DNA of 64,000 bases from Ensifer adhaerens (GTDB lineage Bacteria > Pseudomonadota > Alphaproteobacteria > Rhizobiales > Rhizobiaceae): contig NZ_PNFP01000017.1 of NCBI RefSeq assembly GCF_002940685.1, positions 1 to 64,000 of the forward strand. The letters run 5' to 3'. Both the position numbers and the translations under genes were made by a program. Positions within the stretch are counted from its first letter, which is position 1, and each line of letters opens with the position of its first letter. Below are positions 10,110-16,055 of this stretch, one piece after another. Below the pieces are notes generated by a model. It was not told the origin of the DNA. It saw nothing but the letters and a program-made list of their open reading frames with translations, and did no database searches.

Positions 10110-11773
<1,664 letters not shown>

Positions 11774-14125
11774 ATGTTTCTCGACGACGAAATCGCTTCC
11801 ACGAAGACACGGCAGAACGAAGCGCGCTGGGGCATGTACCTGGCGCTCGCGGCCCTGGCCGCCTGCATCCTGATGTTCATCGGTCTGATGACCCAGGCGA
11901 GTGCGCAAACGCCGGACGCCAAGCCGCAGCAGATGGCAGGCTATGTTCGCCCCAACGATATGGGCACCGGCGCCCTGCTCTTCCCTTCAAAAGAACCCGG
12001 CTATTTCGTCGAGGCGCCGCGGCTTGCGACCGACGTTCAGATCGACGTCAACGGCCCGATCATGCGCACCCGCGTCACCCAGCGCTTCGAGAACCCGAGC
12101 AAGGGCTGGGTCGAGGGCACCTATGTCTTCCCCCTGCCCGAGGATTCGGCCGTCGATACGCTGAGGATGCAGATCGGCGACCGCTTCATCGAGGGCCAGA
12201 TCAAGCCGCGCCAGGCCGCCCGGGAAATCTACGAACAGGCGAAGGCCGAGGGCAAGAAGGCAGCGCTTCTCGAACAGCAGCGCCCGAACATCTTCACCAA
12301 CCAGGTCGCCAATATCGGCCCGGGTGAAACGGTGGTCGTGCAGATCGAGTACCAAAGTGCTGTCCGCCAGTCGAACGGCCTTTATTCTCTCCGTTTCCCG
12401 ATGGTCGTGGCGCCGCGCTACAATCCGCAGCCGATCGTCCAGACCGTCGACCTCGACAGCCGCACCGGCTATGCGGTCAGCGATCCGGTCCCGGATCGCG
12501 AGAAGATCGGAGCGCCGGTCCTCGATCCGAAGGCGAATGCGAAGATCAATCCGGTGACGCTCACCGTCAACCTCAAGGCCGGTTTCCCGCTCGGCGACGT
12601 GAAATCCGCCTATCACGCGGTCGATATCGCCAATCTCGACGATCTCAGCCGCCGTGTGACGCTGAAGGGCGATAGCGTGCCGGCCGACCGCGACTTCGAG
12701 CTCACCTGGAAGGCGATCGAGGGCAAGAGCCCCTATGCCGGCCTGTTCCGCGAAACGATCGGCGGCAAGACCTACCTGCTCTCCTTCGTCACGCCGCCGG
12801 CCGCCGCTGAAGCCAATGCAAAGCCAGTCAAACGCGAGGTCGTCTTCGTCATCGACAATTCCGGCTCCATGGCCGGCCCTTCGATGGAGCAGGCCAAGGA
12901 GAGCCTGGCGCTGGCGATCTCCAGGCTGAAGCTCGAGGACCGCTTCAACGTCATCCGCTTTGACGACACCATGTCGGTGCACTTCCCCGAGCTTGTCGAG
13001 GCGACGCCGGACAAGCGCGAGGACGCAATCGCCTATGTGCGCGGGCTGACGGCCGATGGCGGCACCGAGATGCTGCCGGCGCTGGAAGCAGCCCTTCGCA
13101 CGCAAGGGCCGGTTCAGGCCGGCGCGCTTCGCCAGGTGGTCTTCCTGACCGACGGTGCCATCGGCAACGAGACGCAGCTTTTCGAGGAGATCCAGAAGAA
13201 CCGCGGCGACGCCCGTGTCTTCACCGTCGGCATCGGCTCTACCCCGAACAGCCACTTCATGACCAAGGCGGCCGAATATGGCCGCGGCACCTTCACGCTG
13301 ATCGGCTCGGAGAGCGAGGTCGCCGCACGCATGGGCGAGCTCTTCACCAAGCTCGAAAGCCCCGCGATGACCGACATCGCCGCAAGCTTCGAGGGGGCTT
13401 CCGCTGGCGACATCACGCCAAACCCGATGCCCGACCTTTATCGCGGCGAGCCCGTGGTGCTGACGGCCGAGCTCGATGGCACGCAGCCTCAGGGCAAGCT
13501 GCAGATCCTCGGCAAGGCCGGCGACCAGCCCTGGCGGGTGGAGATGGACATCGCCAAGGCCTCGGCCGGCCAGGGCATCGCCAAGCTCTGGGCGCGCCGC
13601 AAGATTGACGACCTCGAAGCGAGCGCCTCGACGATCGCCGACCCGGCGACCCTCGACAAGCGGATCGAGACGGTGGCACTTGCCCACCATCTCGTCTCCC
13701 GCGTGACCAGCCTCGTCGCCGTCGACGCGACGCCATCACGCCCCGCCAGCGAGAACCTGAGCGAAACGAAGCTGCCGCTCAATCTCCCTGCCGGCTGGGA
13801 CTTCGGCAAGGTTTTTGGCGAGGAGCCGGCTGGCAATGCGCCGGGCAAGGTGGATGAGCGGGATGCCGCGCTCGAAAGCCGGACCAAGCTTGCGATGGTG
13901 ACGGCCGACCGCATGCTCGCCGCACCGACGGCGCGGGCGGCAGGTCTGCTCGCGGAAGCCAACAACCAGGTCGCCCTGCCGCAGACGGCGACGGAAGCGG
14001 ACAGGCAGATCCTGATCGGCCTGATGCTGCTCGCCTTCGCCCTGCTGGCCGGCACGACCTTCGTCTTCTGGCGCGCGCCGATCGCCGCCGTGGTCAATGC
14101 CGGAGTGCGCCGCCGTGGCCGCTGA
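11774..14125 (+). CDS. VIT/VWA surface protein with C-terminal sorting signal (sortase target)
   Basis: The 783-residue protein is the dedicated substrate type of proteobacterial class GN sortases. An N-terminal membrane/signal segment (about 19-44) is followed by a VIT domain (about 70-190, including RFENPSKGWVEGTYVFPLP). Next is a von Willebrand A domain whose MIDAS motif DNSGS starts near 362. A tripartite sorting signal ends it: LPQTAT at 735-740, a hydrophobic span of about 21 residues, and the basic tail RRRGR. This predicts export, cleavage in the LPQTA region by the adjacent sortase and attachment to an unknown envelope acceptor. The sortase start codon lies within its 3' end. The ATG at 11774 has a G-rich site upstream. 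Confidence 0.9.
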   Translation: MFLDDEIASTKTRQNEARWGMYLALAALAACILMFIGLMTQASAQTPDAKPQQMAGYVRPNDMGTGALLFPSKEPGYFVEAPRLATDVQIDVNGPIMRTRVTQRFENPSKGWVEGTYVFPLPEDSAVDTLRMQIGDRFIEGQIKPRQAAREIYEQAKAEGKKAALLEQQRPNIFTNQVANIGPGETVVVQIEYQSAVRQSNGLYSLRFPMVVAPRYNPQPIVQTVDLDSRTGYAVSDPVPDREKIGAPVLDPKANAKINPVTLTVNLKAGFPLGDVKSAYHAVDIANLDDLSRRVTLKGDSVPADRDFELTWKAIEGKSPYAGLFRETIGGKTYLLSFVTPPAAAEANAKPVKREVVFVIDNSGSMAGPSMEQAKESLALAISRLKLEDRFNVIRFDDTMSVHFPELVEATPDKREDAIAYVRGLTADGGTEMLPALEAALRTQGPVQAGALRQVVFLTDGAIGNETQLFEEIQKNRGDARVFTVGIGSTPNSHFMTKAAEYGRGTFTLIGSESEVAARMGELFTKLESPAMTDIAASFEGASAGDITPNPMPDLYRGEPVVLTAELDGTQPQGKLQILGKAGDQPWRVEMDIAKASAGQGIAKLWARRKIDDLEASASTIADPATLDKRIETVALAHHLVSRVTSLVAVDATPSRPASENLSETKLPLNLPAGWDFGKVFGEEPAGNAPGKVDERDAALESRTKLAMVTADRMLAAPTARAAGLLAEANNQVALPQTATEADRQILIGLMLLAFALLAGTTFVFWRAPIAAVVNAGVRRRGR

Positions 14126-14783
14126 CAACGAAACGCCCGAACCACATCAGGGCTTTCTCGCCCGCCTCTCGGCGGCCGAGACGATCGTGCTCGCGATCAT
14201 CGCCCTCATTGCCCTTGCCGGTCTGCTTTTGATCGGCAAGGGTTTCTACATGAAGGCGAAGGCCGAGGTCTCGCAGGTGCTGCTGAAACGCACCTTCGAG
14301 GCCCAACTGCACGGCAACCCGGATGGCAAGCCCTGGCCCTGGGCCGACTTCCAGACCGCCGCGGAGATCTCGGCGCCACGGATCAACCGCTCGGCGATCG
14401 TGCTCGAAGGTGCAAGCGGCGAAGCGCTCGCCTTCGGGCCCGCCTGGCTGACGACGACGCCGCTGCCCGGAAACGAGGGCACCTCCGTCATCGCCGCCCA
14501 CCGCGACACGCACTTCCGCTGGCTGAAGGACGTCAACCCGGGCGACCTCCTGGTGCTGACCCGCAAGGACGGCCGCCGCTTCCTGTTCCGGGCCGGCGAA
14601 AGCCGCGTTGCCCGCTGGGACGAAAGCGGCATCAATGCGTCTGCCAGCGGCCACCACCTGGCGCTCGCCACCTGCTGGCCCTTCGATGCGATCGAGCAGG
14701 GTCCGATGCGCTACATCGTCGATGCCGAGCTCATCGGCGAACAGCGCCCGGTGCCGCTGACCACGGGCTCGATCTCGAAATAA
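14115..14783 (+). CDS. Class GN sortase
   Basis: This membrane-anchored cysteine transpeptidase (222 residues) is paired with the VIT/VWA protein. One membrane segment lies at about 23-42 and the sortase domain follows. The catalytic set is visible: His about 129 in AAHRDTHF, Cys about 187 in LATCWPF and Arg about 199 in MRYIV. The GTG at 14115 is preferred because GGAG sits nine bases before it; an ATG at 14097 is also in frame but has no site. The gene overlaps the end of its target by 11 bases, so the two are translationally coupled. The response regulator and kinase often found with such systems are absent here. Confidence 0.9.
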   Translation: MAADNETPEPHQGFLARLSAAETIVLAIIALIALAGLLLIGKGFYMKAKAEVSQVLLKRTFEAQLHGNPDGKPWPWADFQTAAEISAPRINRSAIVLEGASGEALAFGPAWLTTTPLPGNEGTSVIAAHRDTHFRWLKDVNPGDLLVLTRKDGRRFLFRAGESRVARWDESGINASASGHHLALATCWPFDAIEQGPMRYIVDAELIGEQRPVPLTTGSISK

Positions 14784-14867: not shown

Positions 14868-16055
14868 ATGCGGCAAGCGGGCGCTGGAACATCGGCACGG
14901 GCGGCAAATCGGTCAGGCACGGTCGCCATCCTGGCGATCTCCGTCGCTCTGGCAGCGTTTGCCCCTTCGGGCGCCGGGGCACAGGAAGTGCGCGAGTTTC
15001 CGAGCGAGCACGGCACCCTGCGCGTCGAGACGCTCGCGACCGGCCTTGAACACCCCTGGTCCGTCGAGGCCCTTCCCGATGGTAGCCTGATCGTCAGCGA
15101 GCGCCCGGGACGGATCCGGATCGTGCACGACGGCAAGGTCTCGAAGCCGCTGACCGGCGTGCCCAAGGTCGCAGAACGCGGCCAGGGGGGCCTGCTCGAT
15201 ATTGCCCTTGACCCGGGCTTTGCGGAAAACCGGACGCTCTTCCTGACGCTGGCAGCAAATGGCAATGGTGGCTTCGGTACGGCGCTCATGCGCGCGAAAC
15301 TGACCGAAGACGGAACCGGTCTTGCCGACGTCAAGGAACTCTTCCGGATGAACAAGTTCACCGGCAAGGGTCAGCATTTCGGCTCGCGTATCGCGATCGC
15401 CCCCGACGGCAGCCTGTTCTTCGGCATCGGCGACCGCGGCGAAGGCGACCGGGCGCAGGACCCGCGCGATCATGCCGGCGCCATCCTGCACATCAATGCC
15501 GACGGCAGCATTCCCGGATCGAACCCCTATCACGGCGGCACCGGGGGTCTCGCGGAGGTGTGGTCGAAAGGCCACCGCAATCCGCAAGGGATCGCCTTCG
15601 ATCCGAAGGACGGCACGCTTCTGACGGTCGAGCACGGCGCGCGCGGCGGCGACGAGATCAACAATCCGAAGGCCGGCCACAATTACGGCTGGCCCGTCAT
15701 CACCTATGGCAAGGACTATTCCGGCGCCGAGATCGGCGAAGGGACGGCGAAAGAAGGCCTCGATCAGCCGCTCTTCTATTGGGATCCCTCGATCGCGCCC
15801 GGCGCGCTTGCCGTCTATCGCGGCAAGATGTTCCCCGAATGGGACGGCGACCTTCTGGTGGCGGCACTGAAGTACCAGTTGCTGGCCCGCCTCGAGCGTG
15901 ACGACAGCGGCGCCATCGGGTCGGAGGAACGGCTGTTCGACGGCGAGTTCGGCCGCATTCGCGACGTGGTCGTGGCGCCCGACGGAGCCTTGCTGATGGT
16001 GACGGACGAGGAAGACGGCGCCGTGCTCAGGGTCTCCCGGGCGGCAACGCAGTAG
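14868..16055 (+). CDS. PQQ-type aldose sugar dehydrogenase (GSDH family), secreted
   Basis: The 395-residue protein has an N-terminal basic stretch, a hydrophobic span and an AGAQ cleavage region (about 34-40), so it is probably periplasmic. The remainder is a six-bladed beta-propeller of the soluble glucose/sorbosone dehydrogenase family, like E. coli YliI. Typical segments are GLEHPWSVEALPDGSLIVSERPGR, RGQGGLLDIALDPGF, GKGQHFGSRIAIAPDG, SKGHRNPQGIAFDP and EHGARGGDEINN. It should oxidise aldoses using pyrroloquinoline quinone; the true substrate is unknown. It starts 84 bases after the sortase on the same strand and converges with the DUF3052 gene 18 bases beyond its stop. No sortase-type signal is present, so a link to the sortase is unproven. 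Confidence 0.88.
   Translation: MRQAGAGTSARAANRSGTVAILAISVALAAFAPSGAGAQEVREFPSEHGTLRVETLATGLEHPWSVEALPDGSLIVSERPGRIRIVHDGKVSKPLTGVPKVAERGQGGLLDIALDPGFAENRTLFLTLAANGNGGFGTALMRAKLTEDGTGLADVKELFRMNKFTGKGQHFGSRIAIAPDGSLFFGIGDRGEGDRAQDPRDHAGAILHINADGSIPGSNPYHGGTGGLAEVWSKGHRNPQGIAFDPKDGTLLTVEHGARGGDEINNPKAGHNYGWPVITYGKDYSGAEIGEGTAKEGLDQPLFYWDPSIAPGALAVYRGKMFPEWDGDLLVAALKYQLLARLERDDSGAIGSEERLFDGEFGRIRDVVVAPDGALLMVTDEEDGAVLRVSRAATQ

What the first reader, a model, noticed from the sequence alone, without database searches (positions are those of the whole stretch)
11774..14783. Compact two-gene sortase system in a Gram-negative rhizobium
A VIT/VWA protein ending in LPQTAT, a membrane span and RRRGR overlaps a sortase with intact His, Cys and Arg. 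Seen directly: both catalytic and substrate motifs, and overlapping genes. Known: class GN sortases pair with one dedicated target, often with a two-component system nearby. Here no such regulator flanks the pair; aatA and a PQQ-type sugar dehydrogenase do. What the sortase attaches the VWA protein to in this organism is unknown.
Basis: partly seen in the sequence, partly recalled or inferred. Interest (0 to 1): 0.75.

Follow-up and report, generated by a model that had tools for sequence, protein, structure and literature searches.

The report
Dedicated sortase and target in Ensifer
Two overlapping genes in a soil rhizobium encode an enzyme predicted to tie one dedicated protein to the cell envelope; this pair is an already described Gram-negative system, although what the protein is tied to has still not been shown.

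Summary
Gene 1 (11774-14125) is the "marine proteobacterial sortase target protein" (TIGR03788, 864 bits, cut-off 552). Gene 2 is a class GN sortase (TIGR03784, 195 bits, cut-off 158), probably starting at GTG 14115 rather than ATG 14097.

It is the only sortase found in the genome, and one of nine LPQTA sites has the sorting architecture. A 2011 paper (PMC3237569, passages) already describes such VWA targets beside a dedicated TIGR03784 sortase.

The missing regulator is ordinary: the dedicated kinase passes its cut-off in 0 of 18 sortase-bearing family genomes and reaches E 1e-100 in 0 of 22 class genomes. aatA and the sugar dehydrogenase are conserved neighbours.

A small addition: in four loci the VIT-VWA ectodomain has been deleted in frame, and in three of them the sortase is also broken, which supports a functional pair.

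Most likely the sortase cuts LPQT|AT and links the protein to diaminopimelate of peptidoglycan; cleavage and acceptor are inferred, not shown.

The parts
11659..11720 (.). conserved intergenic block upstream of the target gene (candidate promoter or regulator site, function unknown)
   Evidence: alignment of 12 upstream regions, Ensifer to Rhizobium; its core occurs once in the window
11774..14125 (+). sortase target: signal peptide, VIT domain, VWA domain, C-terminal sorting signal (783 aa)
   Evidence: TIGR03788 864.4 bits vs cut-off 551.65; Pfam VIT 86-193, VWA_3 355-507; low-confidence model resembles inter-alpha-inhibitor heavy chain 1
11774..11905 (+). N-terminal export signal with a hydrophobic stretch, likely cleaved after Ala44 (ASA|Q)
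   Evidence: hydropathy maximum 2.44; Ala44 invariant in 18 aligned targets; cleavage itself is inferred
13976..14122 (+). sorting signal: LPQTAT, membrane span, RRRGR tail
   Evidence: LPQTAT in 76 of 77 relatives with a long target ORF, LPGAAT in one
14115..14783 (+). class GN sortase (222 aa from GTG 14115), one N-terminal membrane span; catalytic His135, Cys193, Arg205 in the numbering from ATG 14097
   Evidence: TIGR03784 195.3 bits vs cut-off 158.25; conservation; start codon; sortase fold
10110..11312 (-). aatA-type aminotransferase, conserved divergent neighbour, probably not part of the system
   Evidence: match in 80 of 80 loci
14868..16055 (+). PQQ-type sugar dehydrogenase, conserved downstream neighbour, probably not part of the system
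   Evidence: match in 77 of 80 loci; also found near aatA in L211, where the pair is only a remnant

Best explanation
A dedicated class GN sortase system. The target is exported by Sec, its signal peptide is removed, and it is held in the inner membrane by its C-terminal span with the VIT-VWA ectodomain in the periplasm. The membrane-anchored sortase, made by an overlapping gene, cuts LPQT|AT through a Cys193 thioester. It passes the protein to an amine, most likely the side chain of meso-diaminopimelate in lipid II or peptidoglycan, so the VWA protein ends up covalently wall-tethered. There it probably binds a ligand through its VWA domain, in envelope upkeep or root-surface life. Shown here: families, catalytic residues, sorting signal, pairing and joint decay. 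Inferred: topology, cleavage site, acceptor and role of the target.
For: Both proteins pass equivalog cut-offs. One sortase match in the genome. Of 9 LPQTA sites in the genome only this one is followed by a span and basic tail, and a tail profile finds no second good match (3.4e-28, next 0.88). Pairing: target over cut-off in 18 of 18 sortase-bearing family genomes, own included, and in 0 of 12 sortase-less ones tested (12 of the 133 sortase-less genomes). His in 79, Cys in 79, Arg in 80 of 80 relatives. Sortase broken in 3 of 4 loci with a gutted target. Nearest other sortase models are class D, one of them LPxTATN-specific; best solved structure B. anthracis SrtD. A review's passages state that B. 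anthracis SrtC cuts LPNTA between Thr and Ala and uses m-diaminopimelate of crossbridges as nucleophile (PMC3297441).
Against: No acceptor, cleavage or localisation data for any class GN sortase appeared in the passages I saw. [quoted passage not shown] The same VIT/VWA family elsewhere carries GlyGly-CTERM or PEP-CTERM signals (PMC3237569), which do not point to peptidoglycan. The L164 locus keeps a sortase with all catalytic residues beside a target without VIT-VWA.
Confidence: 0.6

Rival explanations
1. The sortase transfers the target to a lipid or outer-membrane amine (for example an ethanolamine headgroup) for surface display, as proposed for rhombosortase and VesB.
For: VIT/VWA relatives carry GlyGly-CTERM or PEP-CTERM in other bacteria, so one protein family is sorted by three enzyme types (PMC3237569, passages). 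[quoted passage not shown]
Against: Enzyme fold and nearest models are those of class D and E sortases, and a class D-like enzyme is reported to use m-diaminopimelate. The named neighbours look metabolic, but I made no search for export genes.
Confidence: 0.18
2. The sortase acts mainly as a processing protease: it hydrolyses LPQT|AT and releases a soluble periplasmic VIT-VWA protein.
For: A single dedicated substrate needs no general anchoring machinery. Sortases can hydrolyse when no amine is present (recalled, from no call).
Against: A plain signal peptide would suffice to make a soluble periplasmic protein, yet a motif-span-basic tail is kept in 77 of 77 loci with a long target ORF (76 LPQTAT, 1 LPGAAT).
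Confidence: 0.15
3. The target is polymerised into a pilus-like fibre, as by class C sortases.
For: VWA domains occur in pilus adhesins (weak structural matches to SpaC and PilB).
Against: The class C model matches weakly (23.1 bits against cut-off 160); no second protein with this sorting signal was found.
Confidence: 0.03

Closest known systems
Class GN sortase TIGR03784 with target TIGR03788 (described in PMC3237569)
   Same: Same sortase family beside an LPXTG-type VIT/VWA target, one such target per genome
   Different: No kinase over the TIGR03785 cut-off in this genome; the other family and class members tested lack it too
Class D sortases (B. anthracis SrtC/SrtD, LPNTA)
   Same: Nearest non-GN models and best solved structure; Ala after the scissile Thr; diaminopimelate reported as acceptor for SrtC
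   Different: Gram-positive; below the class D cut-offs here (79.6 vs 140 and 75.9 vs 165 bits)
Rhombosortase/GlyGly-CTERM and exosortase/PEP-CTERM
   Same: Tripartite C-terminal signal, and sometimes the same VIT/VWA target family
   Different: Enzymes not homologous to sortase (exosortase: passage; rhombosortase is a rhomboid-type protease)
Inter-alpha-trypsin inhibitor heavy chains
   Same: VIT plus VWA architecture; best fold match of the low-confidence target model; in animals also linked covalently at the C-terminus to a polymer (recalled, from no call)
   Different: Animal proteins, chondroitin ester linkage, no sortase (recalled)

Membership tests
Class GN sortase (TIGR03784) | model score over curated cut-off | tested here: met
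   195.3 vs 158.25 bits
Class GN sortase (TIGR03784) | catalytic His, Cys, Arg in conserved positions | tested here: met
   H135, C193, R205; kept in 79, 79 and 80 of 80 relatives
Class GN sortase (TIGR03784) | adjacent dedicated target of TIGR03788 | tested here: met
   864.4 vs 551.65 bits, overlapping genes
Class GN sortase (TIGR03784) | only LPXT-type target in the genome | tested here: inconclusive
   No second target found by an LPQTA scan with CTN leucine codons (9 sites; reversed control pattern 15) or a tail profile (150 of 176 candidates scored); other LPxT variants were not scanned genome-wide
Class GN sortase (TIGR03784) | dedicated histidine kinase TIGR03785 (common partner, not required) | tested here: not met
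   best match in this genome 150.5 vs cut-off 612.2 bits, only model positions 348-695
Class GN sortase (TIGR03784) | transpeptidation shown biochemically | not testable with these tools
   no assay possible
Class D sortase | model score over cut-off | tested here: not met
   NF058671 79.6 vs 140; NF033746 75.9 vs 165 bits

The most novel reading that the evidence does not exclude
In rhizobia the class GN sortase links a root-contact-induced VIT-VWA protein to a non-peptidoglycan acceptor, making it a bacterial counterpart of inter-alpha-trypsin heavy chains. The repeated in-frame stripping of the VIT-VWA domain, leaving a signal peptide, LPQTAT and membrane span (L164), yields a second functional, minimal substrate.
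Probability: 0.08. Interest if true: 0.65.

Novelty: already known. Interest (0 to 1): 0.3.

Why it matters
Sortases are rare and poorly understood in Gram-negatives. A one-enzyme, one-substrate pair found across Ensifer and Rhizobium, and present in Rhizobium johnstonii 3841 (L141), makes the acceptor question directly testable by two clean deletions and one mass-spectrometry experiment. A published Ensifer adhaerens OV14 table lists a protein annotated as this target as up-regulated in contact with roots (PMC6637203, section 13), which suggests a condition to test.

Tried and rejected
Missing two-component system as a special feature: rejected, it is the norm in this class. The kinase search in family genomes gave many generic kinase hits, none over cut-off. 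One search carried the tool's own warning that nothing rang in its controls, so it does not stand alone; the same family at the same threshold rang in 26 of 398 genomes of the phylum sample.

aatA or the sugar dehydrogenase as functional partners: considered unlikely. They lie near the pair in nearly all loci, but this fits vertical inheritance, and both remain near the remnant pair in L211.

Additional targets: the LPQTA scan returned 9 sites, 8 without the architecture; it misses leucine codons TTA and TTG. A scan of the window alone for LPxT[AGS] plus span plus basic tail found only this gene among 557 open frames. A whole-genome scan for all LPxT variants was not done.

Selection on sortases beside stripped targets: pairwise Ka/Ks for 3 loci against the rest of the 80 was only suggestive. 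L172 lies somewhat above the baseline median, L178 is mixed, L164 is below the median in one Ks band and slightly above it in another, with high Ks. The baseline changes with Ks in a way that mixes lineages, so I draw no strong conclusion.

Target structure: the model has mean pLDDT 52. Its match to inter-alpha-inhibitor heavy chain agrees with Pfam and with sequence hits to PDB chains, but adds little.

Promoter scan: no sigma-70-type match; four terminator-like matches, near the shuffle mean of 2.8.

Papers: full-text searches for Rhizobium plus sortase plus LPXTG, class GN sortase, TIGR03784, the sortase target name, vault protein inter-alpha-trypsin plus rhizobi and five wider ones listed no biochemical study of this pair that I recognised. 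The library lacks most subscription journals. I saw passages only, except section 13 of PMC6637203.

Full report
What is there. The window holds a 783-aa target gene (11774-14125) overlapped by a sortase gene. NCBIfam names them TIGR03788, marine proteobacterial sortase target (864.4 bits, cut-off 551.65), and TIGR03784, class GN sortase (195.3, cut-off 158.25). Pfam finds VIT and VWA in the target and Sortase in the enzyme. The target starts with a hydrophobic export signal and ends LPQTAT, a strong membrane span, then RRRGR. The sortase has one N-terminal span and a sortase-fold domain. Foldseek's best PDB match is B. anthracis SrtD, followed by class E and class A enzymes (model mean pLDDT 76).

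Start codon. Across 15 Ensifer and Sinorhizobium loci (of the 80 fetched) the codon matching window GTG 14115 is ATG in 12 and GTG in 3, and none has ATG at the place of 14097. I place the start at 14115, with an 11-base overlap.

One sortase, one target. The genome has one sortase match. Of 9 LPQTA coding patterns in it (the reversed control pattern gave 15), one lies in a C-terminal span-basic context. A profile of 17 tails finds this gene at 3.4e-28 and then only two matches at E 0.88 and 0.99 (150 of 176 candidates scored).

Distribution. TIGR03784 is over cut-off in 18 of 151 genomes of the family and 20 of 240 of the class sample, own genome included in both. The 18 family genomes with sortase all have TIGR03788 over cut-off. 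12 of the 133 without were tested: 0 pass the cut-off, though 8 give weak matches. A scan of named genomes gave 115 relatives, of which 80 were kept, in records titled Ensifer, Sinorhizobium, Rhizobium, Pararhizobium, Agrobacterium or Rhizobiales bacterium. In these, aatA is matched in 80, the sugar dehydrogenase in 77 and the EamA-type gene in 72 of 80. aatA begins 2.5-3.1 kb from the sortase in 66 of 80, closer in 3 (the stripped loci below) and further, up to 4.8 kb, in 11. The neighbourhood is conserved context.

Regulator. The dedicated kinase TIGR03785 passes its cut-off in 0 of 18 sortase-bearing family genomes. It reaches E 1e-100 in 0 of 22 class genomes with a TIGR03784 match (22 of the 24 non-own genomes, leaving out two with fragment matches; three of the 22 are below the sortase cut-off). 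In a phylum sample of 398 genomes, 26 reach E 1e-100 and 17 pass the cut-off, and all 26 are labelled outside this class. 18 of those 26 have a class GN sortase match, 15 over cut-off. By the coordinates printed, I count 10 of these 18 with kinase and sortase within 6 kb. So the kinase is a partner in other classes, and its absence here is ordinary.

Conservation and decay. Of the 80 named loci, 76 carry the target in one open frame, 1 (L115) has it split over two frames, and 3 (L164, L172, L178) keep only its ends. The motif is LPQTAT in 76 and LPGAAT in 1 of the 77 loci with a long ORF. The sortase lacks Cys in L172 (Gly) and His in L178 (Asp), and has all three residues in the other 78. Catalytic loss is thus found in 2 of 3 loci without the ectodomain and in 0 of 77 with it (Fisher P 0.00095; relatedness of loci is not corrected for). 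In all three the ends of the target are fused in frame into short open frames of 174, 152 and 123 aa, with different break points; L178 also has LPHMAT in place of LPQTAT. The genomes of these three loci hold no full target elsewhere (0 of 3 over cut-off). A fourth case came from an unnamed family genome (L211): a 144-aa open frame keeps signal and span but not LPQTA (an LPDTG stands further upstream), and the sortase stops right after its membrane span. So 3 of 4 stripped targets sit beside a broken sortase. L164 is the exception, with LPQTAT and an intact sortase. Four of four deletions being in frame would have a chance of 1 in 81 if frame did not matter; since open frames draw attention, this is weak.

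Mechanism. The pairing and joint decay support enzyme and substrate. Cleavage between T and A and transfer to an amine follow from the sortase family. Meso-diaminopimelate is my preferred acceptor because the nearest characterised enzymes are class D-like and B. anthracis SrtC is reported to cut LPNTA between Thr and Ala and to use m-diaminopimelate (PMC3297441, passages). This is inference. A lipid acceptor is a serious rival, because VIT/VWA relatives carry GlyGly-CTERM or PEP-CTERM elsewhere (PMC3237569, passages) and rhombosortase-processed VesB carries glycerophosphoethanolamine (PMC6219818, passages).

Biology. In a published table, an E. adhaerens OV14 protein annotated as marine proteobacterial sortase target (OV14_RS17535) is up-regulated on days 5-7 in contact with roots, and its 80%-identical S. 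meliloti match SMc01580 is listed as down-regulated (PMC6637203, section 13). I did not compare those sequences with the window. That SMc01580 might be a shortened form like L211 is a guess.

Novelty. [quoted passage not shown] The finding is therefore already known. My searches listed no biochemical study of the pair that I recognised in the held library.

Noticed in passing
L164:9355-9879, L172:9411-9869, L178:9507-9878, L211:623-1057: Four rhizobial loci carry in-frame shortened targets (174, 152, 123, 144 aa) that lack VIT-VWA but keep signal and span, with different break points; the sortase is broken in three of them.
   Followed up: partly
window 11659-11720: A block upstream of the target gene is strongly conserved in 12 aligned regions from Ensifer to Rhizobium and its core occurs once in the window; it may be a promoter or regulator site.
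   Followed up: partly
L098 (G065:C300:946-2889): A divergent second TIGR03788-like protein (456.8 bits, below cut-off) on a short contig where, of ten window genes tried, only the target matched; its tail was not examined.
   Followed up: no
L016 and L029 (G053): One family genome has two class GN sortases, each beside target sequence, one of them at a contig end.
   Followed up: no
L176: A Rhizobium metagenome-assembled locus has LPGAAT in place of LPQTAT with all three catalytic residues kept in its sortase.
   Followed up: no
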